Source of the DNA: Parabacteroides faecis | GTDB lineage: Bacteria; Bacteroidota; Bacteroidia; Bacteroidales; Tannerellaceae | Direction: 5' to 3' | Length of the DNA stretch: 64,000 nucleotides | NCBI RefSeq assembly: GCF_014647375.1 | Contig: NZ_BMPB01000001.1 | Span: 434,001 to 498,000, forward strand | Part shown: positions 1,968 to 32,987 of the stretch, piece by piece | Position numbering within the stretch: position 1 is the stretch's first letter | Layout of the letters: every line of letters begins with the position of its first letter | Position numbers and translations under genes: made by a program | The notes under the pieces: model-generated | The model's input: the letters and a program-made list of their open reading frames with translations, nothing else | The model's database searches: none | What the model was told of the DNA's origin: nothing

Positions 1968-3512
1968 TCAATATCCCGGATTCTGTTCCAGCAAATAATT
2001 GATCTGTCTTTCTCTTAACGGGAAAGCGAATACCAAACGGTTTTCCGTTACCTCAAATGCGGAAGGAAGAATCCACTGATACTTCGCCTTCATCGTCTTT
2101 CCGAACGCGGTCATTGTTTCTATCGCTTTACCTGTACGAATCAGATCTGTCCAACGATGGTTTTCAAAGGCCAGCTCATGACGCATCTCATCAGCTACAT
2201 CCTCTGCAGTAACGCTGGTCAGCGACTCCAATCCGGCACGGGTTCTTACCTCATTAACATAAGGTAAAGCCTCTGCATTTCGATTCTGCGCTACCAAGTT
2301 TTCTGCCAGTAACAACAAAGCACCTGCATACCGGTAAACCGGGAAGTTATCTCCTGCACGCCCAGCATACTGATAAGGAGGATGATAATACTTCCGGATG
2401 AAGTAGTAGAAATTTTTACCAGTTGTCGGAGTAAAATCCGATACCGTCTTGACTTCTTCGCAAGTAAACTGTTCAGCGTCATCTGTCTTACCTTCTGCTA
2501 CAGCAATGGAAGCATCCAAACGCTTGTCACCCGGTTCGTAAGACTGAATCATCTCTTCCGTAGGAACACACCAGCCACCGCTTGTACCTGCATAGTTCGA
2601 AAAGGTGATACCCATCAGGAAGTCATTATTACTACATTTCGGAATCAAACGCCAAGGAATATCATTATGTACGCCTGCATTAGAGCCATCTTCGATGTAC
2701 TGTATTTCAAAAATAGATTCTTTCGAGTTCTTATTGGCAGGATTAAATACAGCTTCATAACTGTCCAAAAGACCGTAATTCATCTGTGTGATATCTTTCA
2801 AATCCTGTTCAGCAGCTTTGTAATCACGAGTAGGTTGTGACATATAACAATAAGCACGCAGCATTTTAGCAGCTCCCATCGTTGCCCGGCCACTCTGCGG
2901 GAAAGTGCTTGCTACCGGCAATCCCAAAGAAATCGCTTCCGAGACATCGGTAAGTACTTGTTTATAAACATCTTCTGCCGGAGATTTAGCAGCAAAAGCT
3001 TCTGCTTCGGTAGTAACCTCTTGCAACATAAGAGGAACACCGCCCCAATGCTGTACCAAATCGAAATAATAGAAGGCTCTCAGGAACAAAGCTTCTGCTT
3101 TTACCGTTTTCTTCTCTTCTTCCGTCAATTCGGAAGCATCCAGTCTACCCAAAATCGTATTTACCTTGGCAATACTAGAATAAACGCCTTTATAACGGTC
3201 CGGACTCCAACCGACAGTTTCGTCATCTAAAAACAAAGCTAGTTTTTCAGTCGAGTTATAAGGACCTCTATCACCGCTATAGTAGGTATAAAATGTATTA
3301 TCCGAACGCATCTCATCCATAAATATACCACTTAAGGCGATATTTCTCAAACCTGTATACGAAGCAACCGTAGCTTGCTCGAAATGATCTGCAGTCTTAT
3401 AGAACGTTTCCGTCGTAATAGTTGTCTCAGGAGTCAGATTCAGGAAAGAGTCACTGCAAGAAGAAAGAGACAACACACTTGCCGCAAAAATATATATATT
3501 TAACTTTTTCAT
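1968..3512 (-). CDS. SusD/RagB outer-membrane glycan-binding lipoprotein
   Basis: This 514-residue protein is the surface lipoprotein partner of the SusC transporter encoded 13 bp upstream; it caps the barrel and binds oligosaccharide. The N-terminus has a lipoprotein signal with lipobox LSSC at residues 16-19. SusD features follow: helical repeats containing ALFLRAFYYFDLVQHWGGVPL (around residues 143-163), and a C-terminal region with YAGALLLLAENLVAQN and FENHRWTDLIRTGKA, the latter typical of the family end. Length is normal. Together with the preceding SusC it forms a standard pair, here without an adjacent sigma/anti-sigma pair. The glycan bound cannot be read from sequence, but the flanking GH106 and GH78 suggest a rhamnose-containing one. 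Confidence 0.95.
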   Translation of the reverse strand: MKKLNIYIFAASVLSLSSCSDSFLNLTPETTITTETFYKTADHFEQATVASYTGLRNIALSGIFMDEMRSDNTFYTYYSGDRGPYNSTEKLALFLDDETVGWSPDRYKGVYSSIAKVNTILGRLDASELTEEEKKTVKAEALFLRAFYYFDLVQHWGGVPLMLQEVTTEAEAFAAKSPAEDVYKQVLTDVSEAISLGLPVASTFPQSGRATMGAAKMLRAYCYMSQPTRDYKAAEQDLKDITQMNYGLLDSYEAVFNPANKNSKESIFEIQYIEDGSNAGVHNDIPWRLIPKCSNNDFLMGITFSNYAGTSGGWCVPTEEMIQSYEPGDKRLDASIAVAEGKTDDAEQFTCEEVKTVSDFTPTTGKNFYYFIRKYYHPPYQYAGRAGDNFPVYRYAGALLLLAENLVAQNRNAEALPYVNEVRTRAGLESLTSVTAEDVADEMRHELAFENHRWTDLIRTGKAIETMTAFGKTMKAKYQWILPSAFEVTENRLVFAFPLRERQINYLLEQNPGY

Positions 3513-3525
3513 ATTCTAATGCTCT

Positions 3526-6500
3526 TTAAAATTTAACATTCAAGCCAATTGTATAAATTCTGGCAACAGGATATGTTGTATGATCCACTCCCTGATATAA
3601 TCCGCTTGTATTCTTATTTACTTCCGGATTCATTCCCGGATAAGAACCTACGGTAAACAGGTTTTGAGCACTTCCATAAACACGTATTCCCTTGATATAA
3701 GGATTTGATTTCATCGGAATCGTATATCCTAACGTGATATTCTTCAATGTTATGTAATTATTCTTGAATACCCAACGAGAATTGGTATATCGGAATAATT
3801 CCGTCGTACCTGTTCTTGTTCTCGGAATATTACCGTTACCTGGATTATCTTCTGAGCGCCAACGTTCTGCAACTTCCTTACGAACATTGAATACACCGTC
3901 TATATTTTCCGTCCATTCATAAGTTCCGTCTATAATGTCTCCGCCTAATGAACCGGTAAATACAACGCTCGCGTCAAAATCTTTCCATGAGAAAGTATTC
4001 GTCATACCGAAAATACAATCCGGATTCGGATCCCCGATGAAAGTACGGTCATTGTTATCGATAATACCATTTCCATCCAAATCTTTCATGCGGACAGTAC
4101 CGACCATAGAAGAGGCATGCTTAGGTCCGGCTTCATATTCTTCCTGAGTCATGAAAACACCATCATAGACGTAGCCGTAGAACAGACCTAACGGTTTACC
4201 GACTTCCGTACGGTTGTAATCTTCCTGATTGTTATTACCGCCAATCGGCGTATTGTTCGTACCCAGCTTCATTGCTTTATTACGATTAAATGTCAAATTC
4301 AAGCTGGTATTCCATTTAAACTTGCCTGTCATATTCTTCGTTTCCAAGCCAACTTCATGTCCCCAGAATCTGAATTCACCAATATTGGATTGGATGTTTT
4401 CGAATCCGGAAGAATAAGGAATATCAATCTGATACAACAAACCATCCGTTTTCTTCCAATAGTAGTCATAAACCAAGAATACACGGTCATTGAATAATCC
4501 TAAATCTACACCGAAGTCGAGTTGTTTGGTTGTTTCCCAGGTAAGGTCCGCATTACCGATACCACTTGTTCCACGTCCGGCAGAAATTCCGTTATTGAAG
4601 ACATAGTTGTAAGTTCCGATCGTAGCCAAATGATTATAGTTACCGATATTATAGTTACCTACGATACCATAACTTCCACGTAATTTCAAATAACTCAACC
4701 TATCGAATCTCTCCATGAAGCTTTCATCCGAAGCAATCCAACCTGCAGAAACAGAGGGGAAATTAGCCCACTTCGCATTCATACCAAAACGAGAACAACC
4801 ATCCCGACGGAAAGATACAGACAGTAAGTATTTACCCATATAATCATAATTGGCACGTGCCAGATAAGAGATCATTGCCCATGAACTTCTGTCACCTTCA
4901 CCTGTTTTTGTCGTGGCAACATTGAACCACCCCACTTCATCATCAGGAAAATCTGATGCATTGATTTTTGCATTTTCTGAGGTTGTCTTCTGGGTTGAAT
5001 ATCCAAGCAAAAGATCTACATTATGCTTATCCGCAAATGTCTTATTGTAGGTCAACGTATTTTCGATCAACCAGTTCACATATTTACTGGTACCATAAGA
5101 ACCGACAGCCGGTTGAGGAGGAGCAGTGAACATGGCACCATTTGCAATAGAAGGCACCCAGGATTCGGTTTGATCCGATCCTAAATCGGCATTCGCACTG
5201 ATACGATATTTCAATCCGTCTATAATCTTGACATCTGCATAGGTGTTAAGCGTTCCTCTCATTTTCCTTTTAGGATCGTCACGTTCACTCAACACGAGAT
5301 AGAAGTTCGGATTGGCAAACATACCTGGTTGTGAATAAGATATCGGATATGTTCCGTCATCATTCTTATATTTCAACTGTGGATCCATCAAGAAGGCAGA
5401 ACCAATTATATAACGTCCGCCACCCAATCCGGGGATAATCTGCCCGCTCATATAAGAACCTGATAAATTCAAGCCAAACGTTACGCGGTCCGAAGCTTCA
5501 TATACATTATTGGCACGTGCCGAGAAGCGTTCCGAATAGGTATTGATAATAACACCATCCTGCTTGTTGTAGTTCAGGTTCACAGCCGATTTCACTTTTG
5601 TGGTTCCTGATTGTAAACTCAGGTTATAATTCTGCGTCAATGCAGTCTGCAAAAGCACATCGTACCAGTCTGTTCCATTCTGTAACGAAGAAGGATTCCG
5701 ATAACATTCAGGAACTCCTCCGGTATAGCCTTCATACTTAGCCTGATCTTCGTAATATTCTTTTTTGAACTGAGCAAATTCCTGAGCATTCATCACATCA
5801 GGACGTCCTCTTTTCGATACTTGTGTTGCACCGAAATAAGCACTGAACTCTACATCTGTTTTTCCTTCTTTCGCCCTTTTGGTCGTTACCAAGATAACAC
5901 CGTTGGCAGCCCTGGAACCATACAAAGAGGTAGAAGCAGCATCCTTAAGAATTGTAATATTTTCAATTTCTTCAGGACTTATCGACTCCAGTCCCGTACC
6001 TTCGTTCGGAGTGATCGGGAATCCATCTACTACTACAAGAGGACTGTTACCACCATTCACGGAAGCAGCGCCACGGATACGGATAGCCATACCACCGCCG
6101 GGTTCACCGTTTGCCTGAGTGATCTGTACACCCGAGAATTTACCCTGCATCTTCTGGCTGATATTCGGAACAGGAATGTCTTCCAGTTCTTCATTATTCA
6201 ATTTACTCATAGAGCCGGTTACCGAACGGGCTTTCTGAGTACCGTAAGCCACAACAACGACTTCATCCAGCGCTTCTGAATCTTCCGATAGCTTTACTGA
6301 AAAAGTTGTTTGATTACCTACTACGATGTTTTGTGTATTATAACCGAGATAAGAAATTTGCAATGTCGCATTATGAGAAACTTCTAAAGAAAATCGTCCG
6401 TCTACATCGGTAACGGTTCCGTTCGTCGTGCCTTGTTCCAGCACATTTGCACCGATAATCGGGGTTCCTGTTTTATCCGTCACAACACCCGTGATTTTCT

Positions 6501-6657
6501 TTTGTTGCTGGCTAATCGTCACAGACGCATCTTTTAAATTGGAGCCATTAGCCGCAGATACATTTGCTCCTGAGAGCACGCTTAAAAGTAATAATGGGAG
6601 TGTAGATCTTAATATAGGAGTATATATACCCCCCCCCCCCGTTAAACATTTTTTCAT
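3526..6657 (-). CDS. SusC/RagA TonB-dependent transporter with poly-G tract in the signal peptide
   Basis: A 1,043-residue outer-membrane importer. Domains: signal peptide (1 to about 36), a carboxypeptidase-D-like beta-sandwich (about 54-130, ITGVVTDKTGTPIIGANV), a TonB-box-like DEVVVVAYGTQ, a plug with the SusC signature LVVVDGFPI, and a 22-strand barrel ending in aromatic F. It lacks the STN signalling domain found in the other two SusC proteins of this window, so it is not expected to talk to a FecR anti-sigma. Codons 6-10 (ACG GGG GGG GGG GGT) contain 12 consecutive G at 6629-6640. Eleven G give a stop after 15 codons and 13 G a stop about 38 codons in, so the gene is ON only in this register. 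ATG at 6657 is the only upstream start I see. Confidence 0.95.
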   Translation of the reverse strand: MKKCLTGGGGIYTPILRSTLPLLLLSVLSGANVSAANGSNLKDASVTISQQQKKITGVVTDKTGTPIIGANVLEQGTTNGTVTDVDGRFSLEVSHNATLQISYLGYNTQNIVVGNQTTFSVKLSEDSEALDEVVVVAYGTQKARSVTGSMSKLNNEELEDIPVPNISQKMQGKFSGVQITQANGEPGGGMAIRIRGAASVNGGNSPLVVVDGFPITPNEGTGLESISPEEIENITILKDAASTSLYGSRAANGVILVTTKRAKEGKTDVEFSAYFGATQVSKRGRPDVMNAQEFAQFKKEYYEDQAKYEGYTGGVPECYRNPSSLQNGTDWYDVLLQTALTQNYNLSLQSGTTKVKSAVNLNYNKQDGVIINTYSERFSARANNVYEASDRVTFGLNLSGSYMSGQIIPGLGGGRYIIGSAFLMDPQLKYKNDDGTYPISYSQPGMFANPNFYLVLSERDDPKRKMRGTLNTYADVKIIDGLKYRISANADLGSDQTESWVPSIANGAMFTAPPQPAVGSYGTSKYVNWLIENTLTYNKTFADKHNVDLLLGYSTQKTTSENAKINASDFPDDEVGWFNVATTKTGEGDRSSWAMISYLARANYDYMGKYLLSVSFRRDGCSRFGMNAKWANFPSVSAGWIASDESFMERFDRLSYLKLRGSYGIVGNYNIGNYNHLATIGTYNYVFNNGISAGRGTSGIGNADLTWETTKQLDFGVDLGLFNDRVFLVYDYYWKKTDGLLYQIDIPYSSGFENIQSNIGEFRFWGHEVGLETKNMTGKFKWNTSLNLTFNRNKAMKLGTNNTPIGGNNNQEDYNRTEVGKPLGLFYGYVYDGVFMTQEEYEAGPKHASSMVGTVRMKDLDGNGIIDNNDRTFIGDPNPDCIFGMTNTFSWKDFDASVVFTGSLGGDIIDGTYEWTENIDGVFNVRKEVAERWRSEDNPGNGNIPRTRTGTTELFRYTNSRWVFKNNYITLKNITLGYTIPMKSNPYIKGIRVYGSAQNLFTVGSYPGMNPEVNKNTSGLYQGVDHTTYPVARIYTIGLNVKF
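6629..6640 (-). repeat. G12 homopolymer tract, candidate phase-variation switch
   Basis: Twelve consecutive C on the plus strand (G in the coding strand) lie 16-29 bases inside the SusC reading frame, directly next to an alternating TATATATA. Mononucleotide runs of this length are classic slipped-strand sites. I noticed no other C or G run of comparable length while reading the window. Confidence 0.85.
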
Positions 6658-7006
6658 ACTTATTTCACATTTATTATGTTATTAAGAATAGAGTATTTTA
6701 TCAGTCTTACCTGATACGTTTAAGATTATCAAAATTGTACTTTACATAAATTTGATACTAGTGTTTTCAAAAGGAATTAAACCATAGGCATATTATATTA
6801 ATGTTAAACATCTTCAATTCTTTATTTCACATGGCTAGCGCATTTATTGCAACAAAATTATTCACTTAAAAATAAAGAATGTTTAGAAAAATGACTTTAG
6901 ATATTATAAAAATGACAGAATAGTTTATATCATACAAAACCCACTTATCCGTTAAGCTTCGTAGACATTAAAAGACTTTTATAAAGAATGATGTAATAAC
7001 ATATAT
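6658..7006. other. AT-rich gap upstream of the STN-less SusC
   Basis: No gene is supported here. The stretch is strongly AT-rich and should hold the promoter and leader of the phase-variable SusC. The only Bacteroidetes -7 match I see on the minus strand is at 6853-6860. I see no long inverted repeat that would suggest an invertible promoter. Confidence 0.6.
6853..6860 (-). promoter_or_regulatory. Possible -7 box (TAATTTTG) for the SusC/SusD pair
   Basis: On the minus strand TAATTTTG matches the Bacteroidetes -7 consensus TAnnTTTG. No TTTG is visible at the usual -33 distance, and it would give a leader of about 190 bases, so this is tentative. Confidence 0.3.
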
Positions 7007-7043
7007 TCACACTTCCCGGTGAAGGCATCACCAGGGAGTGTAA
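7007..7043 (-). terminator. Terminator hairpin after GH78
   Basis: A 16-bp stem (7007-7022 with 7028-7043, three mismatched or wobble pairs) encloses loop AGGCA. It lies about 60 bases past the GH78 stop on the minus strand and before the next SusC leader. The following sequence is AT-rich rather than a pure T run. Confidence 0.65.
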
Positions 7044-7099
7044 GATGATCCAAAGGATTGAATCACATACGACACACAGCTAAAACCCGAATAAGACTA

Positions 7100-10000
7100 T
7101 TAACGCACCTCTACCTGACCGTCCTGTACCAGGAACTCGAAAGAGCCGGATTCCAGTTCATAAACAGCAACAGGTATTCCATTACGAGAAGATTTTCTTA
7201 CAAATTTCACTCCTTTAATTTCTTTACAATCAGAAACAGACTCAGAGACAGGCAAATAAAGGGTTGCCGTCGTATTTGCCGGTACTGTCGTGCGATAAGC
7301 GGTCAATGTACCCTTCCCATCGGCAGTCCAGGCACTATGGATAACACCGTAGCAGGAGACATAACTTCCTGCTAAAGAAAGATAATCGGCACCGGCTGAA
7401 GGCTGCAGAACAAAATGCTTATATCCGGCTTCTCCCTGACCGTAATCGCTTGTAATACCTAGTTGATATTCATACATCCATTGCCCGACTGCACCTAAAG
7501 CAAAATGATTGAATGAATTCATAGCATTACTATGACCTTTAGCAAAGGCGACTTCATAACCGTTCCAACGCTCCCAAATAGAAGTAGCCCCTTTAGTAAC
7601 CGGATATAACCAGGATGTAAAATCAGTACAGGTAAACATCCGATATGCTTCTTTAACATGACCGGAACGACTCAATGCAGGCAGGATATTCGGTGTTCCG
7701 GAGAAACCGGTCGTAATCGTATAAGCCGGATAGCTGGCGTCACCCAGACCACTTGCAGATGGATTAGCAGCCAATTCTGCCAAATAGGCTTCCGCCCTGG
7801 CCTTGTTCCTATCGGAAAAACAATTGAAGTTCAGCGGTGTGGCATAAGAAGACTGTGAATGAACCAGTTTTCCGTCTACATTTTTGGTTTTACCTGTGGC
7901 TTCATCTACATATGCCTTATTCCATTCCTCTTTTACCAAGGCATGGCGCTCACGGAGCAACTCCGCATAGTCTGCCCGACCGATCGCATCGGCCATACAA
8001 GCGGTCACTTCCATCATATACATATAAATAGCATTATTAACCAGATCAGCAGGAGTATTCGGGTCCATTGCCAGCCAGTCAGACAATCCGCTTGCTTTGC
8101 TCGACAAATGAGGATAGGTCTCACTAAAATCATAAAAATCCATACCGTTCAACCAATCCATCATCGCTTCCATATTTTCCTCTATGACCTGTTTGTTGCC
8201 ATACTGGATATAGAGTTGCCAGGGCACCATGCAGACAGCAGCCGCCCAAGTCGTACCATCGGCAAACGTCGTATCGTCTGCCAGGTTATAAGTCGGGACC
8301 GTACTGCCTATTCCACCCGGAGCTTCTGTAGCACTACCCACTCCCTGGTCTGCCCGCAAGGTCACCATCCATTGCCGGAAGAAATTCTGTACATCCGAAT
8401 TGTAAGTAGCTGTACGCGTGTAAGCCTGTGCATCGCCAGTCCACCCCATACGTTCATTCCGTTGCGGACAATCGGTAGGGATCGTAAAGAAATTACCCAT
8501 CTGGCTACGCTGTATATTTTTGAATAACTGATTTACCAGTTTACCAGTCCTGCCATCAGCCGTAACAGCCTCATACTTTCCGGAAGGCAAGTTGTCTGAA
8601 GAAAGGACCAATCCCTTCACACTGCTGACGGGTAAAGCCCCCGAATGAGACGGCAACGTAATCTGTATATACTGATAGCCCCGGTAGGTCGTCGAAGGCC
8701 GGATAGTCACTTCTCCGTCATCTTTCGCAATATAAAAATCAGAAACCAGCGCAGCACGCATCGTTTCATGCAACGGCCGGCCGGCTATATTTCTTCCCTT
8801 CTTCCCGTATTCACCGATATACCAGGCATCATCTCCCTTTAAACCTGGATAGAGCTGTTCTGCATAACGCATGATAACAACATCCCCTTTTTTCAGCCAT
8901 CCTGCCGGAATAGTCACTGACGGAACACCGACCATATTCACCCCCATATCATATACATAGGTATGCTTATCGGCACTATGTACCGGCATAACCTGTCTGG
9001 CAGTCAATACTTCACGGACGCGTACCGGATCATCGTAGCGTGATACTATATCAAAATGTATCCAGTCTCTTTTTTGTATGATATCCGGTTGCCCCCATGC
9101 CGAATCGTTATAGGCCGTAGTAGTCCACCCTTCTACAGCCGGTTCCCGGTTCGCATCATAACGTTCCCCATGGAAGAAACTACCGGAGCGGACCGGCCCT
9201 TCTTTGTAAATCTTCCAGGTATCCTTATCGGTCACTACCACCTGTTCGCTTCCATCTTCATAAGATATGACGAGACGGGCCAACAGAGCTTCGTGATCTC
9301 CAAAGAAATTAAAATTAGGCATCGTAAAGGTCATATAGCCGGTATACCACCCCGGATTCAACCGGGCAGCAATGCAGTTATCACCTTCCGCCAACCGGTC
9401 GGTAACATCATATGCATAATAGCCCAATACCTCCCGGTACTGGCTATTACCGGGTGCAAACCAATCTTCACCGACACGGTTCCCGTTCATAAACAACTCA
9501 TAAGCACCCATGGCCGTCACATACAATTTTGCCCGGGTCATTTTCTTCCCATTCCGGGTCGAGAATGAAGAGCGCAGCATCGTCAAAGCGCCATGACTTG
9601 GATCGGCATACCCTATTGTCATCTTTTCCGTATCGTTCCGGACAAGAATATCGTCTCCTTCCACACGGACATTCGGCAATGTTTCAAAAATGTTATAATG
9701 CTGTTTATCAAAAGTTACGTTATCCTCACTACGTCCGCAGTTCTGTACCCGATAACCGGAATAACGGACCTCACAATCCGGCATAGCCGCAAAACCGATC
9801 GAGGCCAGATGCGGTAATGTATTCTGGTCATGTGTATCTCCCCAGGGACCGACATTAAAACGAGCCGGTGTATTTCCGGAGGCAGCAGTGGTAGTCAATG
9901 CCTTTCCGTCGATAGTAAAAGTGAGATTGCTGGATTCGACTTTTACGGTTATCGTATGTTCCGTATTTTTATTGTCTGATGTAAAAAGGGAGTTGATATT

Positions 10001-10741
10001 GGTTTCCGGATATTTCTCTGCGGAAACAGTCAGGAAAGGAATATCGGCACGGTCGGATTTCGCATAGCCGACACGGTAAATATGTAAAGCTGCCCCCTGA
10101 GCACTACCTACACCGGACAGATCCAATTCGACACGCACATAGTTTTCCCCTTGCAGGTTATCAGCATTCTGAAAAGAATCGATCAGGCGAAAGTCGTTTG
10201 CCCCTAATATGAACGAAGCCCTATCCCCCTTGAGTAATTTGAACCGGGTCGAGATCATAAAATAGTTGGTAGCCGCAGCATCCAGTATCAACTCTTTCGA
10301 GCCGATCCATTCCGCACCGTCCCAGGCCGAAATATGGGGATTCATCAATCCGGTTTCAAAAAAGGAAGATGCCGTATAACTTTTACCTTGTGCATCCCAG
10401 ACCGTCAGGTTCCAGTCATAGGCCATCTCAGCCTGCAATGCCACTCCCATATATTTTATCTGGGTAGAAATATCCGAATCGACTTTACGACTGTCCCACA
10501 CCACCCGGTTATCGCTTTTACGTGTGACGACTATCCGGTAGGCAGTTTGCTTTTGTCCCACTTCATCCGATTGCATCTGCCAACTGAATACCGGATGTTT
10601 ATCTTCGACAGCAAGTGGCTCCACCTTATTTTGTACCTTTAGAGAAAGAATGGAAGTAGTGCACCAGGCATATGCCGGACAAAGAAACAGACAGCCTACC
10701 AACAAATATATCCAATGTAGTTGCAATAATGTGTATTTCAT
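7100..10741 (-). CDS. GH78 alpha-L-rhamnosidase, large secreted form
   Basis: A 1,213-residue exported enzyme that hydrolyses terminal alpha-L-rhamnosides by an inverting mechanism. A signal peptide ends near residue 25 (PAYAWC). N-terminal beta-sandwich domains follow, with a concanavalin-like insertion at about 145-330, then the rhamnosidase N domain (KLYVTAMGAYELFMNG, 405-420). The (alpha/alpha)6 catalytic domain is marked by DCPQRNERMGWTGD; Glu763 is the expected general acid and Asp770 a conserved acid. SIWERWN carries Glu1057, the expected base. All catalytic residues are present. The protein is longer than typical GH78 because of the insertion. It sits alone between two hairpin terminators, so it probably has its own promoter in the 10742-10853 gap. 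Confidence 0.93.
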   Translation of the reverse strand: MKYTLLQLHWIYLLVGCLFLCPAYAWCTTSILSLKVQNKVEPLAVEDKHPVFSWQMQSDEVGQKQTAYRIVVTRKSDNRVVWDSRKVDSDISTQIKYMGVALQAEMAYDWNLTVWDAQGKSYTASSFFETGLMNPHISAWDGAEWIGSKELILDAAATNYFMISTRFKLLKGDRASFILGANDFRLIDSFQNADNLQGENYVRVELDLSGVGSAQGAALHIYRVGYAKSDRADIPFLTVSAEKYPETNINSLFTSDNKNTEHTITVKVESSNLTFTIDGKALTTTAASGNTPARFNVGPWGDTHDQNTLPHLASIGFAAMPDCEVRYSGYRVQNCGRSEDNVTFDKQHYNIFETLPNVRVEGDDILVRNDTEKMTIGYADPSHGALTMLRSSFSTRNGKKMTRAKLYVTAMGAYELFMNGNRVGEDWFAPGNSQYREVLGYYAYDVTDRLAEGDNCIAARLNPGWYTGYMTFTMPNFNFFGDHEALLARLVISYEDGSEQVVVTDKDTWKIYKEGPVRSGSFFHGERYDANREPAVEGWTTTAYNDSAWGQPDIIQKRDWIHFDIVSRYDDPVRVREVLTARQVMPVHSADKHTYVYDMGVNMVGVPSVTIPAGWLKKGDVVIMRYAEQLYPGLKGDDAWYIGEYGKKGRNIAGRPLHETMRAALVSDFYIAKDDGEVTIRPSTTYRGYQYIQITLPSHSGALPVSSVKGLVLSSDNLPSGKYEAVTADGRTGKLVNQLFKNIQRSQMGNFFTIPTDCPQRNERMGWTGDAQAYTRTATYNSDVQNFFRQWMVTLRADQGVGSATEAPGGIGSTVPTYNLADDTTFADGTTWAAAVCMVPWQLYIQYGNKQVIEENMEAMMDWLNGMDFYDFSETYPHLSSKASGLSDWLAMDPNTPADLVNNAIYMYMMEVTACMADAIGRADYAELLRERHALVKEEWNKAYVDEATGKTKNVDGKLVHSQSSYATPLNFNCFSDRNKARAEAYLAELAANPSASGLGDASYPAYTITTGFSGTPNILPALSRSGHVKEAYRMFTCTDFTSWLYPVTKGATSIWERWNGYEVAFAKGHSNAMNSFNHFALGAVGQWMYEYQLGITSDYGQGEAGYKHFVLQPSAGADYLSLAGSYVSCYGVIHSAWTADGKGTLTAYRTTVPANTTATLYLPVSESVSDCKEIKGVKFVRKSSRNGIPVAVYELESGSFEFLVQDGQVEVR

Positions 10742-26106: not shown

Positions 26107-27816
26107 TCAATCTAACGGATTGAATGTTCCGCCGCTCCATCCTTGTGTCTGCTCCATCTTGGAATTAGTTTCCAGATATTTGTTCGGTATGGCATAAAAA
26201 TAATAGTTATCTTTAAAATCGATTGTAAACTTCTTATCCAGAACAACCAATGAGTCTCTGAAGTAAGTGCCATAATCATTCTCAAAGTCAACCGTATCCT
26301 TTATTTTATTGAATTCTTCTTCAGGAATATTCAGTTTTGGCTGAACGCCGTGACGAACTTTACCATTCAATTCCGAAGCAAACATACGTCTGCGTCGCAA
26401 ATCCCAATAACGTTTTCCTTCAAAAGCCAGCTCGATCTTTCTTTCAAGCATGATTGCATCAATCATCTGATCCGATGTCATCCCCTCCTTCAAACCATAC
26501 ATTCCATTATTTCCGGCAAGTATTCCTGCCCTTTCTCTGATCGCTTTCAAAACAGCGTAAGCTTCATCTGTTCTGCCTAACATAGCTGCACATTCTGCAT
26601 AGTTCAACAACACTTCAGCATAACGGATTTCGATCCAGTCCGTACTGCTTCGTTCCGTATAATAGGGTGTGTAAGACGGATCGACAGCCTTTCTGCAATA
26701 AAATCCTGTTGCAGTTGGCATATTTAATTCAGCACCAACGTAAGTCCACTGCTTTCTTCCGCTTTTACCGCTTAATTCCCATGTACAACTATTATATGCA
26801 ACTGTTGTTTTAAACCGCGGATCACGGTTTTTCCAATATAGAACAGGATCATAGTCCTTCGATTCTGAAATAGGTACTCCTGTAACCATCGGATAAGACT
26901 CAACCATTTCCAATGTCGGATGATTTGCTCCCGCATGATTCTGTGCCTCAGAAATTGGACGTGTAGATGCATTCCAATAATTTACAGCACCCGGTTCCTG
27001 GTATCTGCGTCCCCAAACGACTTCTTTGTTCATTTCATCATACCACAAATTCTCGTAACTGGGGTATAGGCCATAGCCATTTGCTTCCAGTTCTTCTTTT
27101 GCTTGTTTATTCACCTTATAGGCAGTTTCCCAACGATCGGTATGATTATCCGGATTAAACTGCGGACTTGCATAATACAACAACACACGTCCTTTGAATG
27201 CAAGTGCAGCAGCCTTAGTAGCCCTGCCGAGATCATCACCAGTCCAGCTCCAAGGTAAATTTTCATAAGCATAATCCAGATCCTGCAGGATAATATCTAT
27301 ACATTCGGAGGTTTTATTACGAGTCACCAACAGATCATCCGTCAGTTTCTGTGGTCTGAGGATCATCGGCATACCACCGTAAACGCGTACCATACCGAAA
27401 TAGCGCCAGGCACGCAAAATAGAGGCCTGTGCTTTCAGGCTGGTACAAGTCTCAGCATCTATAGCCGGATTATCTTCCAGTTTCTCAAATAACAAGTTGA
27501 TATTACGGATACAGCCATAGTACCAATAATCCACAGATGCAGTCGTCAACTGACCATACAGATAAGCATCCCCTCCTTCTGACTCATCCGAATAAGCTGA
27601 AAAATAGGGGATAGCGGCATCAGCATCTCCATCTGCTTCTCCATCCCATTTGGGCAGATTCCTTTCATATAACCGGTTCAGATAAGCAGTCGCATACTTA
27701 GCATCACCCCACACCTGGTCGTCCGTAACGGCAGACAAATCTTTTTTATCAAGGATATCTGAACATCCCATACTCACTGTTAATAATGAGCCGAATAAGA
27801 AATATTTTACATTCAT
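26107..27816 (-). CDS. SusD/RagB glycan-binding lipoprotein
   Basis: From ATG at 27816 the protein has 569 residues and begins MNVKYFLFGSLLTVSMGC, a lipoprotein signal with lipobox SMGC; an ATG four codons earlier is possible. Family features include SILRAWRYFGMVRVYGGMPMIL (near 125-145), DWIEIRYAEVLLNYAECA and IELAFEGKRYWDLRRRRMF, the last being the usual SusD C-terminal helix region. The C-terminus ends TQGWSGGTFNPLD, close to the end of the other large SusD at 56675. It starts 20 bases after its SusC partner, so the two are translated from one message. The pair belongs to the sigma/FecR-controlled locus. Confidence 0.95.
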   Translation of the reverse strand: MNVKYFLFGSLLTVSMGCSDILDKKDLSAVTDDQVWGDAKYATAYLNRLYERNLPKWDGEADGDADAAIPYFSAYSDESEGGDAYLYGQLTTASVDYWYYGCIRNINLLFEKLEDNPAIDAETCTSLKAQASILRAWRYFGMVRVYGGMPMILRPQKLTDDLLVTRNKTSECIDIILQDLDYAYENLPWSWTGDDLGRATKAAALAFKGRVLLYYASPQFNPDNHTDRWETAYKVNKQAKEELEANGYGLYPSYENLWYDEMNKEVVWGRRYQEPGAVNYWNASTRPISEAQNHAGANHPTLEMVESYPMVTGVPISESKDYDPVLYWKNRDPRFKTTVAYNSCTWELSGKSGRKQWTYVGAELNMPTATGFYCRKAVDPSYTPYYTERSSTDWIEIRYAEVLLNYAECAAMLGRTDEAYAVLKAIRERAGILAGNNGMYGLKEGMTSDQMIDAIMLERKIELAFEGKRYWDLRRRRMFASELNGKVRHGVQPKLNIPEEEFNKIKDTVDFENDYGTYFRDSLVVLDKKFTIDFKDNYYFYAIPNKYLETNSKMEQTQGWSGGTFNPLD

Positions 27817-27835
27817 ACTATTGTGCATTATTAAA

Positions 27836-30800
27836 TTAGAAACTAAGGTTCACACCGAAAGAATAACTTCTCATTAGAGGATATGCCCTGATGCTTGAAT
27901 TTTCAGGATCATAATATTTCATTTTATTTTGCAGCAGACATAAGTTGTTGCCTGTCAGGAAGAACTTCAGCTGGGCAACACCTAATTTGGTCAAAACAGA
28001 TTTAGGTAAAGCATACGCCAGATTCACATTTTTCAAACGCATGAAAGAGCCGTCACGTACCCAAAACGTCGATTCTTCACCTGCCGCATTACGGGATGCA
28101 CGCGGAAAAGCAGCATTCACATTCTCCGGAGTCCAGTGGTCAGTCCAGAAGTCGAAATTCGTTTCCTGCGGCCGTGCCTGCGCACCTCTCATATCGATCA
28201 TAATATCATTACCGGCAACACCCTGCAGGAAAATATCCAGAGAGATCCCTTTCCATGAGCCCCCCAAAGAAATACCATAATTCAAAGGAGGAGTCGTGTG
28301 ATTAATAATCCAGTCTTTATCGTTATCATCGATCACGCCGTCGGGTTCGTCACTATTGGCGCCACGTAAATCCCGATAATTCAGCATACCCAGTTCCGGT
28401 TTTTGTCCGAAAATGGTATAGCCCTCCGGCAGTGCATCCAGATCCGCCTGTGTACGAAGAATTCCTGTTGCGATATATCCCATTTTTCGGTCCGTACTAT
28501 AACCAATTTCCGACTTATAGGAACGAAGATTTTCTGCCTCATCTTTCGTAATCACCTCATTAACAGCATATCCCAGATTTCCCTTTACATAATATTTGAA
28601 ATCATCACCGATCTTGTCATTATATCCCAATTCCACTTCAAAACCTCTTGCATCGATGACCGCATAGTTTTCAGACGGCATTTTTGCCCCGAAAGTAGCC
28701 GGGACACTGGCGGCACGATCGCCGAGAATGTCATATGTATGTCTGTAAAATGCATCTACGTTTAGTGAAAGCTTATTATTCAGGAAAGTAGCATCAAGAC
28801 CAAAGTTATACGTCAAAGACTTTTCCCAGGTAATATCCACATTCGGAATTACATCGGCAGCAACACCACTGCTCAATGAACCGAAATAAGCACCGTCCAC
28901 CAGATTATAACGCTGCATCCATTGCCATCCGCTAACAGCATTCTTGTCTTTCAACACGATACGGTCATTCCCCAGAAGGCCGATGGAGGTTCTCAGTTTC
29001 AGGTAATTCATAAACCGTACATTTTCTTTAAAGAATTTCTCTTCCGAAACTCTCCATGCCAATGAAGCAGAAGGGAAGAACCCCCAGCGATTCTTAGGTG
29101 CGAAGTTCACCGATCCGTCGTAACGGAAGGAAGCCTCCACCAAATATTTATCATCGTAACCATAATTCAAACGACCGATGTAAGAGATACGTCCCGTTTC
29201 TTCTCCCTTTCCGTCAACTGTCGAATTCTTTGAATCCGAACTACCTGCAAACAGCTGATCTACAGCAGATGAGATGAAATAATTTCTTCTTCCGTTAAAC
29301 CAATCTACAGTTCCTTCCGTCTGCTCATAAACAAATAGTGCTCCTACATCATGTTTTCCGAATTTATTGGCATAAGTGATATAACCATTCAACTGGTAAC
29401 TATCCTTCGTATCATATTTTTCTTCCAGATAATCACCGTCATTTCTCACCTTAACAAAATCAACTACATCTGTTACAATATGGTTATGGCCGCCGGTCAT
29501 TTTAAACTCATACAACGAATAAGGACGGTTAAACTGTTTGATAAAAGTATGTCTGTTATACTTGTTGAACAATAGTTTCAAACTCAGTCCTTTTACAAAC
29601 GGCACATTATATTGCAACGAAATATTCGCTTCATAGTTAGAATATTTCTTTCTGTTATAACCTGTATTATCGCCTAATATCTCCAACGGATGCCATTCTA
29701 CAAAACTGCCTGTCGGCAAGCCATTGACATAAGGAGGAACCTGTCCGGTACGGAACAACAGGGCTTTATACAAGTCATTCATCGTATCATTGTCATTATC
29801 ATATCTCCAATAAGGTTTATGATCATTCCTTATATCCATATTCAGGTTTAATGTAGCAACCAAATCCTTAGTAATATTTGCTTCGATGTTACTTCTCAGA
29901 TTATATTTTTTGAAACTAAGATTATCAAAAGATCCGGTTTCATAATAATAGTTACCACCTATAAAATAACGAACACGTTCGTTACCTCCGCTTACATTCA
30001 GCGAATGTCTGGTAACCAACGGCTGTTTCCATGCTTCATCCAACCAGTTATAGTTATTTTTCCTGAAATATTCTAATTCATCATCCGTATAATAACTCAA
30101 ATCTGTTGGATCCACATTTTCCACATCGCGGTTGTGGTTTATAAAAAGAGCCTGGTTATAAGCATTCTGTGTCTCCGGTATTTTAGTAGCATCCGACAAA
30201 CCGATAGAACCTGTATAGGAAATGACCGGTTTTCCCATTTTCCCTTTCTTAGTCGTAACTAAAACAACCCCGTTAGCTGCACGTGCCCCGTAAATAGCAG
30301 CCGAAGCACCGTCCTTCAAAACAGACAAATTCTCTACTTCACTGGCATCCAAACCATCAAAAGCAAATTTATCACGTATGATACCGTCTATTACATACAA
30401 CGGTTCCGTATCATTCCAGGTACCTTTTGCACGAACCGTCATATCGGAACTGGCTCCAGGTTTACCTCCGGATTGTGTCAGCAATACACCGGCTATTTTA
30501 CCGACAAGTGCATTCGACAAACTAGAAGCCGGTGTATCCTGTATCTCTTCTGCGCTGACAGAAGAAACTGATCCGGTAAGGTTCACTTTTTTCTGGATAC
30601 CATATCCAACAACCACCACTTCTTCAAGTTTCTGGGTGTCTTCCAACAGCTTCACATTAACAGGAGAACCATCGCGTACAGTCACTTCCTGACTGATATA
30701 ACCGATATAAGAAACCAAAAGACTTTTACCGGAAACATTATCCAAAGTATATTTACCATCAACATCTGTGATCGTTCCGTTCGTAGTACCTTTTTCCACC

Positions 30801-31270
30801 ACGTTGGCACCGATAACCGGTTCTCCATTAGCATCCATAACCACACCTGTGATAGTAACTTTCTTTCCCTGTGCCACAACCGGTATTCCCGGACCATCAC
30901 TCTTTTCCGCCGGGTTGATCAGGATCAGGTTATTCTCTGTGATCTCATACTTGATCCCTTCCTTTGCAAACAGACGGTTCAGGATCGTTTCGACACTCTG
31001 GTCTTTCTCGCGGACAGAAACTTTCTTATCCAGGTTGATTTTTCCACTCTCATAAATAAACCGGAACTCGGACTGGTTCTCTATCAGGAAAAGGATTTCC
31101 TTGATGGACTGATTGCTTACGTCCAACGACAACTTCGTCTTTTGGGAATAAACGGTAGCCGAGATATTGAGCGAGAAAGCAATTAAAGCTAATGTTGTCA
31201 ATCTCATAATAGCGTATACCTTTTTAAGGGCCGGAGACGATTCCGGTCTTGACAAATTAAAAAAATTCAT
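27836..31270 (-). CDS. STN-type SusC TonB-dependent transporter and signal transducer
   Basis: A 1,144-residue outer-membrane importer. After a long signal region (about 1-42, ending TVYSQ) comes an STN domain at about 47-118 (SLDVSNQSIKEILFLIENQSEF ... ILNRLFAKEGIKYEI). This domain passes substrate occupancy to a FecR protein across the periplasm. A carboxypeptidase-like sandwich (VTITGVVMDANGEPVIGANVVEKG), TonB-box-like LEEVVVVGYGIQ, plug motif LYVIDGII and a barrel ending NLSF follow. Its neighbours are a FecR and an ECF sigma gene immediately upstream, and a SusD downstream. This is the standard trans-envelope signalling arrangement for one glycan locus. Confidence 0.96.
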   Translation of the reverse strand: MNFFNLSRPESSPALKKVYAIMRLTTLALIAFSLNISATVYSQKTKLSLDVSNQSIKEILFLIENQSEFRFIYESGKINLDKKVSVREKDQSVETILNRLFAKEGIKYEITENNLILINPAEKSDGPGIPVVAQGKKVTITGVVMDANGEPVIGANVVEKGTTNGTITDVDGKYTLDNVSGKSLLVSYIGYISQEVTVRDGSPVNVKLLEDTQKLEEVVVVGYGIQKKVNLTGSVSSVSAEEIQDTPASSLSNALVGKIAGVLLTQSGGKPGASSDMTVRAKGTWNDTEPLYVIDGIIRDKFAFDGLDASEVENLSVLKDGASAAIYGARAANGVVLVTTKKGKMGKPVISYTGSIGLSDATKIPETQNAYNQALFINHNRDVENVDPTDLSYYTDDELEYFRKNNYNWLDEAWKQPLVTRHSLNVSGGNERVRYFIGGNYYYETGSFDNLSFKKYNLRSNIEANITKDLVATLNLNMDIRNDHKPYWRYDNDNDTMNDLYKALLFRTGQVPPYVNGLPTGSFVEWHPLEILGDNTGYNRKKYSNYEANISLQYNVPFVKGLSLKLLFNKYNRHTFIKQFNRPYSLYEFKMTGGHNHIVTDVVDFVKVRNDGDYLEEKYDTKDSYQLNGYITYANKFGKHDVGALFVYEQTEGTVDWFNGRRNYFISSAVDQLFAGSSDSKNSTVDGKGEETGRISYIGRLNYGYDDKYLVEASFRYDGSVNFAPKNRWGFFPSASLAWRVSEEKFFKENVRFMNYLKLRTSIGLLGNDRIVLKDKNAVSGWQWMQRYNLVDGAYFGSLSSGVAADVIPNVDITWEKSLTYNFGLDATFLNNKLSLNVDAFYRHTYDILGDRAASVPATFGAKMPSENYAVIDARGFEVELGYNDKIGDDFKYYVKGNLGYAVNEVITKDEAENLRSYKSEIGYSTDRKMGYIATGILRTQADLDALPEGYTIFGQKPELGMLNYRDLRGANSDEPDGVIDDNDKDWIINHTTPPLNYGISLGGSWKGISLDIFLQGVAGNDIMIDMRGAQARPQETNFDFWTDHWTPENVNAAFPRASRNAAGEESTFWVRDGSFMRLKNVNLAYALPKSVLTKLGVAQLKFFLTGNNLCLLQNKMKYYDPENSSIRAYPLMRSYSFGVNLSF

Positions 31271-31339
31271 ATATTTGTAATTTGATTGTTAGTTAACAAT
31301 AGTGCTGGACACACTGTGTATTAATGATCAAAAAATAGG

Positions 31340-31365
31340 ACGGGAAGTGTTGCTGCATTTCCCGT
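31340..31365 (-). terminator. Terminator between fecR and SusC, possibly bidirectional
   Basis: A 10-bp stem with one wobble, ACGGGAAGTG (31340-31349) with CATTTCCCGT (31356-31365), has T-rich flanks on both strands. It lies 35 bases past the FecR stop, so it separates the regulator operon from the SusC operon. Confidence 0.8.
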
Positions 31366-31399
31366 TTTTGTGTTTTATGATAGTTTCTTCATAGGCAAA

Positions 31400-32380
31400 T
31401 TATTTAGAGGTTATACTTATATTTTTTCCCTTCACGTGATAGGCAATATTACTTAAATGGGACAAAGCCTCCAGTACTTCCGTTATAGTTTCTTCCTGGA
31501 TAACGCCATTGTAATGTATTTTTTCTCCCAGATTCTTCTGAATAGTGATATTGACATTATACCATCTTTCGAGATATTTACAGACATCCCCTAACGACAT
31601 ATTATCCATATAGAGCTTATTATTCAACCATCCGTAGGCATGAGACAAATCACCATCCAGCTGTTTCAGCTTGTTGGTCCGTTTGTCGAATTCCACCATT
31701 TCGCCGGCCTTCATATTCAGTTTGTTAGTGTGATCTCCCAGTTCGATATGCCCTTCCACCAAAGATGCCTGTACGGTCGGATCGTCAGCATAAGCTTTCA
31801 GATTAAAGGTCGTACCCAACACCCTTACCTCCACTCCGTTTGCCATTTTCACGACGAACGGGGTTTTACTTTTCGATACGTCAAAGAATCCTTCTCCCTG
31901 GAAACGGACCTCCCGGACTTTCTTTTTCGAATTATATACATAGGTAATATCTGACCCCGAATTCAACTTAACGATCGAGCCGTCGGGTAAGGCTATTTCC
32001 GAACGGTTCCCGTAATCAGCCGTCAGACTGACCGAGATATCCTGTTCCTCTTCAAACACTCCACTCAAGGAAAGGACGACCATTAATAAGACAGATGCTG
32101 CGATACCCGATAAAGTATAATACATATTATTCATACGTTTCCGGAAGATATTCTTCTGCCGGTTGACCGTATCGATCTTCTCCCAGGCGCGATCCGTATC
32201 GAACAGGCCGATATCCATATAATGTCCGGATTCCTCCCAGATCCTACGATACCGGTCCAGTTCCTGCCGATTCGACTCATTCCGGTCCAGCCATTCCTGC
32301 AGCACCGGGTCGGTGATCTCTTTCCCACCACTGAGCAGGTAGTCTACTATATGATCGCTTATGAGTCCTTTTCTCTCCAT
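31400..32380 (-). CDS. FecR-family anti-sigma factor
   Basis: ATG at 32380 gives 326 residues (MERKGLISDHIVDYLL). The N-terminal cytoplasmic helices bind the sigma factor and contain the usual WEKIDTVNRQ region. A single membrane segment lies at about 85-105 (GIAASVLLMVVLSLSGVF). The periplasmic FecR domain has ALPDGSIVKLNSGSDITY and EGFFDVSKSKTPFVV. The C-terminal DUF4974 region (NMSLGDVCKYLERWYNVNI ... ITEVLEALSHLSNI) is an STN-like fold that contacts the STN domain of SusC. It follows the ECF sigma gene by 64 bp and precedes an STN-type SusC, so it most likely holds that sigma factor until the substrate is bound. Confidence 0.95.
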   Translation of the reverse strand: MERKGLISDHIVDYLLSGGKEITDPVLQEWLDRNESNRQELDRYRRIWEESGHYMDIGLFDTDRAWEKIDTVNRQKNIFRKRMNNMYYTLSGIAASVLLMVVLSLSGVFEEEQDISVSLTADYGNRSEIALPDGSIVKLNSGSDITYVYNSKKKVREVRFQGEGFFDVSKSKTPFVVKMANGVEVRVLGTTFNLKAYADDPTVQASLVEGHIELGDHTNKLNMKAGEMVEFDKRTNKLKQLDGDLSHAYGWLNNKLYMDNMSLGDVCKYLERWYNVNITIQKNLGEKIHYNGVIQEETITEVLEALSHLSNIAYHVKGKNISITSK

Positions 32381-32444
32381 AAATATTCCTTTTATAAGTA
32401 AGACACCACAAAACAACAAAGGTCCTATACGGACCTAAAAAAAA

Positions 32445-32987
32445 TTATGCACCCTTTACTTCCAGACACTTTTTCAGTCTCTGAAGGGATACCCATATCT
32501 GATTTTTAATTGTCTTGACAGAGATGGATAACTGGTCGGCAATCTCTTTCTGTTTCAGTCCTTTTACACGGTGGAGGAGTAATACCTCTTTACACCTGCC
32601 GGGCAGCAGGTTGATACAATCGTAAAGAGCCATGCGGAATTCTTCAGACTCGAGCGGATTTTCCTCATAATAGGGAAGCTGTTCTTCCCGATTTTCCAAA
32701 AGTGTTCTGTAATTTGTTTGCGTACGGATATGGTTCAGTGCCAGATTTCTCGCCATCTTATACAAGTAGCCGGAAACATTCTCCCCGACCACAATCTTCT
32801 TTCGGTTATTCCAAAGCGTAAGAAACAGCTCCTGCACAACATCTTCGGCATCCTCTTTATCCTCCAACAGACGGTACGCATAACAGCACAGGCGGCTGTA
32901 GTAACGGACAAACAGCTTATTGTAACTACTGTAATCATCTTTTCCGATTGCAGCAATCAGTTTTTCATCTGTTATAGAGGCATTCAA
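32445..32987 (-). CDS. ECF sigma-70 factor of the rhamnose-type locus, TTG start
   Basis: A 180-residue sigma factor with region 2 at about 20-85 (YYSRLCCYAYRLL, DAEDVVQELFLTLW, YLYKMARNLALNHIR) and region 4 at about 125-175 (LPGRCKEVLLLHRVKGLKQKEIADQLSISVKTIKNQI). It directs RNA polymerase to the operon beginning with the STN-type SusC when FecR releases it. The start is unusual: an in-frame TAG lies only two codons upstream of TTG at 32987 (TAG TAT ATA TTG), and no in-frame ATG occurs in the N-terminal region before domain 2. TTG is therefore the best start, which should make translation weak. Confidence 0.93.
   Translation of the reverse strand: MNASITDEKLIAAIGKDDYSSYNKLFVRYYSRLCCYAYRLLEDKEDAEDVVQELFLTLWNNRKKIVVGENVSGYLYKMARNLALNHIRTQTNYRTLLENREEQLPYYEENPLESEEFRMALYDCINLLPGRCKEVLLLHRVKGLKQKEIADQLSISVKTIKNQIWVSLQRLKKCLEVKGA

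What the first reader, a model, noticed from the sequence alone, without database searches (positions are those of the whole stretch)
3526..6657. Poly-G switch inside a SusC signal peptide
Twelve consecutive G occupy codons 6-10 of the STN-less SusC. I translated the two neighbouring registers: 11 G gives a stop after 15 codons, and 13 G gives a stop about 38 codons in. Only 12 (or 12 plus or minus a multiple of 3) keeps 1,043 residues open. Phase variation in Bacteroidales is best known from invertible promoters. A homopolymer switch in a glycan importer would be a different way to vary nutrient uptake or phage receptor exposure. The run also sits beside TATATATA.
Basis: partly seen in the sequence, partly recalled or inferred. 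Interest (0 to 1): 0.85.

Follow-up and report, generated by a model that had tools for sequence, protein, structure and literature searches.

The report
Poly-G switch in a glycan importer
A gut bacterium's sugar-importer gene carries a run of twelve Gs at its very start that probably lets single cells switch the importer on or off through copying slips, and related bacteria carry similar runs in other importer genes of the same family.

Summary
Twelve C at 6629-6640 (+) are twelve G in codons 6-10 of a full-length SusC (3526-6657, -), inside its signal peptide. It is the longest G/C run in this 6.66-Mb genome. Frame arithmetic holds (11 G: stop after 15 residues; 13 G: after 36), but a second ATG, 8 nt downstream, is in frame at 11 G. 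No reads or same-species strains were available, so length variation at this site is not shown.

Comparative evidence is strong. In 66 genomes of the family, 29 of 132 usable G/C runs of 11 or more lie near a SusC start (3.8 expected; 1 of 73 seven-base control runs). Thirteen are inside SusC coding sequence: 5 in frame, 8 out of frame, and all eight out-of-frame bodies stay open to the end of the fetched DNA. One such pair has dN/dS 0.012. Two further genes share the window's layout: start, G run, hydrophobic core. A 74%-identical relative of this importer carries its own G12 at another site.

Best reading: a slipped-strand contingency locus, one of a recurrent SusC class in this family; a new variant of a known kind (compare Neisseria hmbR).

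The parts
6629..6640 (-). Run of 12 G (12 C on +), codons 6-10 of SusC; proposed slippage tract
   Evidence: longest G/C run of the genome
6621..6628 (.). TATATATA directly downstream of the G run in the coding direction
3526..6657 (-). susC: SusC/RagA TonB-dependent importer, 1,043 residues, no STN domain
6553..6657 (-). Signal peptide region (35 residues, by eye): basic start, Gly run, hydrophobic core LPLLLLSVLSGA
   Evidence: sequence and hydropathy scan; cleavage site is an inference
6655..6657 (-). ATG1, in frame with the SusC body at 9, 12, 15 G
6647..6649 (-). ATG2, 8 nt downstream of ATG1, in frame with the SusC body at 8, 11, 14 G
   Evidence: use as a start is untested
1968..3512 (-). 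susD partner, 13 nt after the susC stop
6658..7099 (-). Intergenic region before susC; no inverted repeats suited to an invertible promoter found
   Evidence: in 6500-7200 only a TATATATA palindrome, an 11-nt A/T-rich pair 42 nt apart and a 10-nt pair 309 nt apart

Best explanation
The tract is a contingency (phase-variation) site. Slipped-strand mispairing during replication adds or removes a G, which shifts the frame between the basic start of the signal peptide and its hydrophobic core. At 12 G, as sequenced, SusC is made and exported; at 10 or 13 G translation from the first ATG stops within 36 residues; at 11 G the first ATG fails, but a second ATG 8 nt downstream is in frame and could give reduced or altered expression. 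The switch would vary an outer-membrane glycan importer, and perhaps its adjacent SusD, cell by cell. It is one of a recurrent set of G/C tracts in SusC genes of this family. Shown: the tract, the frames, the family-wide over-representation, and open out-of-frame copies. Inferred: slippage rate, reversibility in this strain, use of ATG2, effect on SusD, and phenotype.
For: Tract and frames. 29 of 132 usable runs of 11 or more in the family lie -700 to +600 from a SusC CTD start, 3.8 expected, against 1 of 73 seven-base control runs, Fisher P 1.7e-5. Leaving out the exact-11 set, which I had looked at before, and the two genes already known (window, G004), 12 of 62 remain, 1.8 expected. 13 of 132 are in SusC coding sequence: 5 in frame, 8 out of frame, all eight bodies open to the end of the fetched DNA. 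Ten bodies checked are SusC/RagA. Out-of-frame ortholog pair G013/G038: 84 synonymous, 4 non-synonymous differences, dN/dS 0.012. L326 and L413 share the layout start, G run, hydrophobic core. Orthologs carry tracts at different sites: window and L416, 74% identical; L382 and L300, 83% identical. A tract elsewhere in this genome is 10 G here and 13 G in G013, the only gap in 1,649 columns.
Against: No read-level or strain-level length variation was seen for this site. The G013/G038 pair has the same length, 11, in both genomes. None of 27 inspected relatives of this gene has a tract near its start. Several of the comparison genomes are fragmented assemblies in which homopolymer errors are possible. 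Outside the family the association was not seen: 1 of 38 exact-12 runs in 299 genomes of the order, the window's own. A run of 12 in a genome this size is rare, not impossible.
Confidence: 0.75

Rival explanations
1. Slippage occurs in transcription or translation rather than in DNA, so each cell makes a fixed mixture of in-frame and out-of-frame SusC, whatever the tract length.
For: Would explain why the out-of-frame G013/G038 pair keeps the same length yet is under strong purifying selection. Transcript slippage at homopolymers is described for Buchnera in a passage of PMC2831843, there for poly-A.
Against: It does not need tracts of different length across homologous sites (9 to 14 at the CTD-plug junction), nor does it explain the 10-to-13 change in L166/L175.
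Confidence: 0.1
2. Chance or neutral microsatellite: the run arose by drift, is tolerated because glycine in the n-region is harmless, and has no adaptive role.
For: The tract is not present in the 27 relatives inspected, and the window copy is in frame.
Against: Over-representation at SusC starts, 29 of 132 against 3.8 expected and 1 of 73 in controls; 8 of 13 coding tracts out of frame with open bodies.
Confidence: 0.1
3. Assembly or base-calling error: the true length differs or is fixed, and the out-of-frame copies in relatives are errors.
For: Homopolymers are error-prone; 28 of 160 runs in fetched loci sat in G+C-rich flanks or at contig ends and were set aside.
Against: G013 and G038, two separate assemblies, agree on 11 C; the G004 copy is in a single-contig genome. 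An error in length would not remove the tract itself.
Confidence: 0.03
4. The G run acts as a structure in the mRNA (for example a G-quadruplex) that tunes translation, not as a slippage site.
For: Twelve consecutive G near a start codon could form such a structure (general knowledge; not tested).
Against: Three of the 13 coding tracts (L382, L271, L278) are poly-C on the coding strand, and six lie at the CTD-plug junction, far from the start.
Confidence: 0.02

Closest known systems
Neisseria meningitidis hmbR and hpuA poly-G phase variation (haemoglobin receptor systems)
   Same: Poly-G tract inside an open reading frame of an outer-membrane uptake receptor system; ON at lengths differing by 3; ON and OFF isolates found (passages of PMC3786947).
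   Different: Other phylum and other cargo; there lengths were measured in isolates and tied to growth, here nothing is measured. Here the tract sits inside the signal peptide and the receptor is SusC/RagA.
SusC/SusD phase variation by DNA inversion in Bacteroides fragilis (Nakayama-Imaohji 2009)
   Same: On/off variation of SusC/SusD importers in Bacteroidales. Seen only as citations and sentences in PMC12632263 and PMC11868660.
   Different: Works through an invertase and inverted repeats; no suitable repeats were found upstream of this susC.
Homopolymeric tracts as regulators in prokaryotes (PMC2831843)
   Same: General idea of frameshifting tracts near the start of genes; passages only.
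   Different: No occurrence of 'bacteroid', 'parabacteroides' or 'porphyromonas' in its main text.
Haemophilus influenzae lic loci with several start codons before the repeat (recalled, from no call)
   Same: More than one start codon upstream of a repeat can give graded expression.
   Different: Tetranucleotide repeat in LPS genes there; mononucleotide run here, and use of ATG2 is untested.

Membership tests
SusC/RagA TonB-linked outer-membrane proteins | Full-length match to TIGR04056 above its cut-off, with TIGR04057 signature | tested here: met
   908.3 bits against a cut-off of 368.25, model 1-981; signature 62.6 against 46.2
SusC/RagA TonB-linked outer-membrane proteins | Adjacent SusD-family lipoprotein gene | tested here: met
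   SusD_RagB and SusD-like_3 in 1968-3512
Simple-sequence contingency locus (poly-G phase variation) | Long mononucleotide run in the 5' coding part, shifting frame when its length changes | tested here: met
   12 G, codons 6-10; stops after 15 or 36 residues at 11 or 13 G from the first ATG
Simple-sequence contingency locus (poly-G phase variation) | Different tract lengths coexisting in one population or among strains of the species | not testable with these tools
   No reads and no second genome of the species were available; the collections hold one genome per species, and records very near the window's genome may be left out
Simple-sequence contingency locus (poly-G phase variation) | ON and OFF copies of comparable genes in nature, the OFF copies otherwise intact | tested here: met
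   5 in frame and 8 out of frame among 13 SusC genes; the out-of-frame bodies open over 499-681 codons fetched. Met for related genes, not for this gene
Simple-sequence contingency locus (poly-G phase variation) | Expression or phenotype follows tract length | not testable with these tools
   Needs an experiment
Invertible-promoter (inverton) phase variation | Inverted repeats flanking the promoter upstream of the gene | tested here: not met
   only short A/T-rich pairs in 6500-7200

The most novel reading that the evidence does not exclude
Tannerellaceae carry a dispersed phasome of SusC importers switched by strand slippage, beside the recombinase-driven invertons. G/C tracts have arisen repeatedly and independently at three places in SusC coding sequence (signal peptide or its end, STN-CTD linker, CTD-plug junction), and a second set lies 129-552 nt upstream of SusC start codons and may set promoter activity. 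Orthologous importers carry tracts at different sites, so selection is for switchability of the importer itself.
Probability: 0.6. Interest if true: 0.84.

Novelty: new variant of a known kind. Interest (0 to 1): 0.72.

Why it matters
Phase variation of gut Bacteroidales surfaces is described mainly through recombinase-driven DNA inversion. A slippage-driven layer acting on SusC would need no recombinase, would be missed by inverton-finding software, and could be read in ordinary sequence data by counting tract lengths. SusC genes that look truncated or lack a signal peptide (as the G004 copy would) may be OFF-phase rather than dead. It would give a testable source of cell-to-cell differences in glycan use, and possibly in phage sensitivity (the last not tested here).

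Tried and rejected
Invertible promoter upstream of susC: no suitable repeats. Tract as a conserved feature of orthologs at the same place: rejected; of 80 relatives fetched I inspected 27, and none has a G/C run of 6 or more within -300 to +150 of its match start. Tract as a promoter spacer inside the gene: rejected for this locus, since after the tract the first in-frame ATG, GTG or TTG is a GTG already inside the hydrophobic core and the first in-frame ATG is 447 nt in; it stays open for the 16 upstream tracts of relatives. Generalising to all Bacteroidales: not supported; of 38 exact-12 runs in 299 genomes of the order only the window's own is near a SusC. A flank signature (TGTTAA within 12 nt before the G run in 15 of 114 tracts against 0 of 684 control windows; TAA[AT] right after it in 34 of 114 against 0-3 of 114) is real, but the window's tract does not carry it (TTTAAC before, TATATATA after), so I did not use it. 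A standard Bacteroides promoter was not convincingly found: one TANNTTTG match about 195 nt before the ATG. Literature: ten searches listed no paper that, by title and abstract, describes a homopolymer switch in SusC; 'susc' also matched 'susceptib...', and most subscription papers are not held. Of nine papers I saw passages, of the rest listings only.

Rows dropped or not examined: of 73 exact-11 places one, G075:C15, was not fetched; of 29 exact-12 places all were read; of 96 places of 13 or more 51 were read; of the 45 not read, 43 are in G022, G045, G058, G075 and G076. In the loci read, 28 of 160 distinct runs were set aside for G+C-rich flanks or closeness to a contig end; one of the 28 was near a SusC (L390). 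The control was 70 loci with 73 seven-base runs: 30 from as many genomes and 40 stretches from two genomes, G040 and G041. The SusC density rests on 5,869 first-look candidates in 262.9 Mb, of which only 10 per genome were scored; if too high, the test is conservative. The -150 to +200 coding range was chosen after seeing the tracts, so its P value is descriptive.

Full report
What is there. The window is 434001-498000 of contig C1 of a 6.66-Mb, 33-contig genome. The two nearest named SusC relatives are from Parabacteroides records, so the host is probably Parabacteroides (inference). On the minus strand, 3526-6657 encodes a SusC/RagA protein of 1,043 residues with CarboxypepD_reg and Plug domains and no STN domain, followed 13 nt later by a SusD gene at 1968-3512. 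The pair lies between two alpha-L-rhamnosidase genes, 7100-10741 (Bac_rhamnosid domains) and one cut by the window edge (Glyco_hydro_106). A second, STN-bearing SusC with a SusD and an ECF sigma/FecR pair stands at the head of the same run of genes (26107-32987). A rhamnose-rich glycan is a likely substrate (inference).

The tract. Twelve C at 6629-6640 read as twelve G in codons 6-10. The product begins MKKCLTGGGGIYTPILRSTLPLLLLSVLSGANVSA: a short basic start, the glycine run, then the hydrophobic core. From the first ATG, 11 G ends after 15 residues, 13 G after 36 and 10 G after 35; 9, 12 and 15 G keep it open. A second ATG 8 nt downstream is in frame at 8, 11 and 14 G. If it is used, the locus would have two ON states and one OFF state; this is untested.

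Is it more than chance? The genome has 8 G/C runs of 8 or more, of which the window's is the longest. Base models over-predict such runs 9- to 25-fold; scaled to the observed number they leave 0.02-0.04 expected runs of 12 or more. That is suggestive, not decisive, so I asked whether the kind of place recurs.

Relatives of this very gene. A scan of named genomes returned 80 SusC relatives, the best being Parabacteroides sp. SUG742 (74%) and P. distasonis An897 (73%). Of 27 inspected, none has a G/C run of 6 or more near its match start; several have STN-type N-termini. Two Tannerella relatives (68% and 69% identical) have G9 and G14 about 206 nt after the match start (L089, L097). The species itself could not be sampled a second time.

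A family-wide class. I listed G/C runs of exactly 11, exactly 12, and 13 or more in 66 genomes of the family and placed them against SusC genes by tblastn. Of 160 distinct runs in the loci read, 28 were set aside as debris or contig ends. Of the other 132, 29 lie between -700 and +600 of a SusC CTD start; 3.8 are expected from 5,869 SusC-like candidates in 262.9 Mb. Of 73 seven-base control runs 1 does (Fisher P 1.7e-5). The exact-11 set had been looked at before that range was set; leaving it out, and the window and G004 genes too, 12 of 62 lie in the range with 1.8 expected. Thirteen of the 29 are inside SusC coding sequence, at three sites: signal peptide or its end (the window's own gene, L355; L326, L413, L382, L271, L278), STN-CTD linker (L300), and CTD-plug junction (L308, L406, L416, L417, L419, L450). 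Of these, ten bodies were checked and match TIGR04056, eight over its cut-off though cut short, and all ten pass the TIGR04057 signature. The window's was checked whole, L382 is the gene of L173, which has CarboxypepD_reg and Plug domains, and L278 is 99% identical to L271.

ON and OFF. Five of the 13 are in frame and eight are not, close to the one third in frame expected if length is free of frame. In all eight the body is open to the end of the DNA read, 499 to 681 codons. A dead gene would be expected to decay, and an ordinary gene to be in frame. The clearest case is the G013/G038 pair: both have 11 C after the signal peptide and both are out of frame, yet over 955 codons there are 84 synonymous and 4 non-synonymous differences, dN/dS 0.012. 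Against a switch, both have the same length; a slippery transcript would explain that too. G004, a single contig of 4,811,379 bases (the length of P. distasonis ATCC 8503 as I recall it), has 13 C after the signal peptide, out of frame.

Independent origins. L416, from another genus, has a body 74% identical to the window's SusC but carries its 12 G at the CTD-plug junction. L382 and L300 are 83% identical and carry C13 and G11 at nearby sites. Apart from these two pairs and L271/L278, the bodies are at most 41% identical. L326 and L413, 32-33% identical to the window's protein, share its layout of start, G run and hydrophobic core, one in frame and one out of frame. Repeated origin in the same kind of gene argues for selection.

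Tracts change length elsewhere in the genus: a 10-G tract of this genome, in a gene with PglD/hexapeptide and ATP-grasp domains, is 13 G in G013, and that is the only gap in 1,649 columns at 97% identity; both are in frame.

Limits. No reads, strain series or expression data were at hand. The coding range -150 to +200 was set after inspection, so its P value (5e-11 with, 7e-10 without the window's gene) is descriptive; the control for that range was 0 of 73 (Fisher P 0.005). Outside the family the pattern was not seen: 1 of 38 exact-12 runs in 299 genomes of the order, the window's own.

Comparison with the known. Poly-G switching of outer-membrane receptor systems is known in Neisseria (hmbR, hpuA; passages of PMC3786947). 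SusC/SusD phase variation in Bacteroides is known by DNA inversion (sentences and citations in PMC12632263 and PMC11868660). Passages of a P. distasonis phage paper (PMC10773633) explain phase-variable phage resistance by inversion. Ten literature searches listed no homopolymer switch in SusC. The mechanism is thus a known kind, in a gene family and order where the held library, as far as I searched it, does not describe it.

Noticed in passing
L166 (G000:C8:315872-315881) and L175 (G013:C33:261938-261950): A second candidate switch in the window's genome: 10 G inside a gene with PglD_N/hexapeptide and ATP-grasp domains, 13 G in its ortholog in G013, both in frame, the only gap in 1,649 columns.
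   Followed up: partly
L318, L319, L320, L324, L330, L303, L427, L428, L430, L445, L440, L441, L288, L290, L294, L273: Sixteen G/C runs of 11-19 lie 129-552 nt upstream of SusC start codons, several between TGTTAA and TAA[AT]; perhaps phase-variable promoters.
   Followed up: partly
114 tracts of 9 or more G across the loci read up: G runs in this family are often preceded by TGTTAA (15 of 114; 0 of 684 control windows) and followed by TAA[AT] (34 of 114; 0-3 of 114 in controls); meaning unknown.
   Followed up: partly
L368, L370, L371, L372 (G248), exact-12 runs: In another family of the order, 12-G runs sit between TGATTATCA-like and TGATAATCA arms, like a hairpin element; four or more copies in one genome.
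   Followed up: no
L172 (G002:C2:3054872-3054885): 14 G shortly after a possible start (MLTKINGGGGGKPAYC...), in frame, followed by a masked stretch that I left alone.
   Followed up: no
L182 (G015:C1:1539758-1539775) and L197 (G018:C42): 18-G and 8-G runs 53-57 nt before ORFs in L182, and two 10-G runs between similar-sized ORFs of about 380-390 residues in L197; possible switches of other surface genes.
   Followed up: no
L367 (G228:C812): A 12-base run 9 nt into an ORF of more than 670 codons that no SusC query matched; the gene was not identified.
   Followed up: no
window 34213-36861 (-): A full-length MutS gene lies 28 kb from the tract, over the NCBIfam cut-off, so nothing here suggests a mismatch-repair mutator.
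   Followed up: no
G022, G058, G045, G075, G076: Many runs of 13 or more G clustered or at contig ends, probably sequencing debris; a trap for homopolymer surveys.
   Followed up: no
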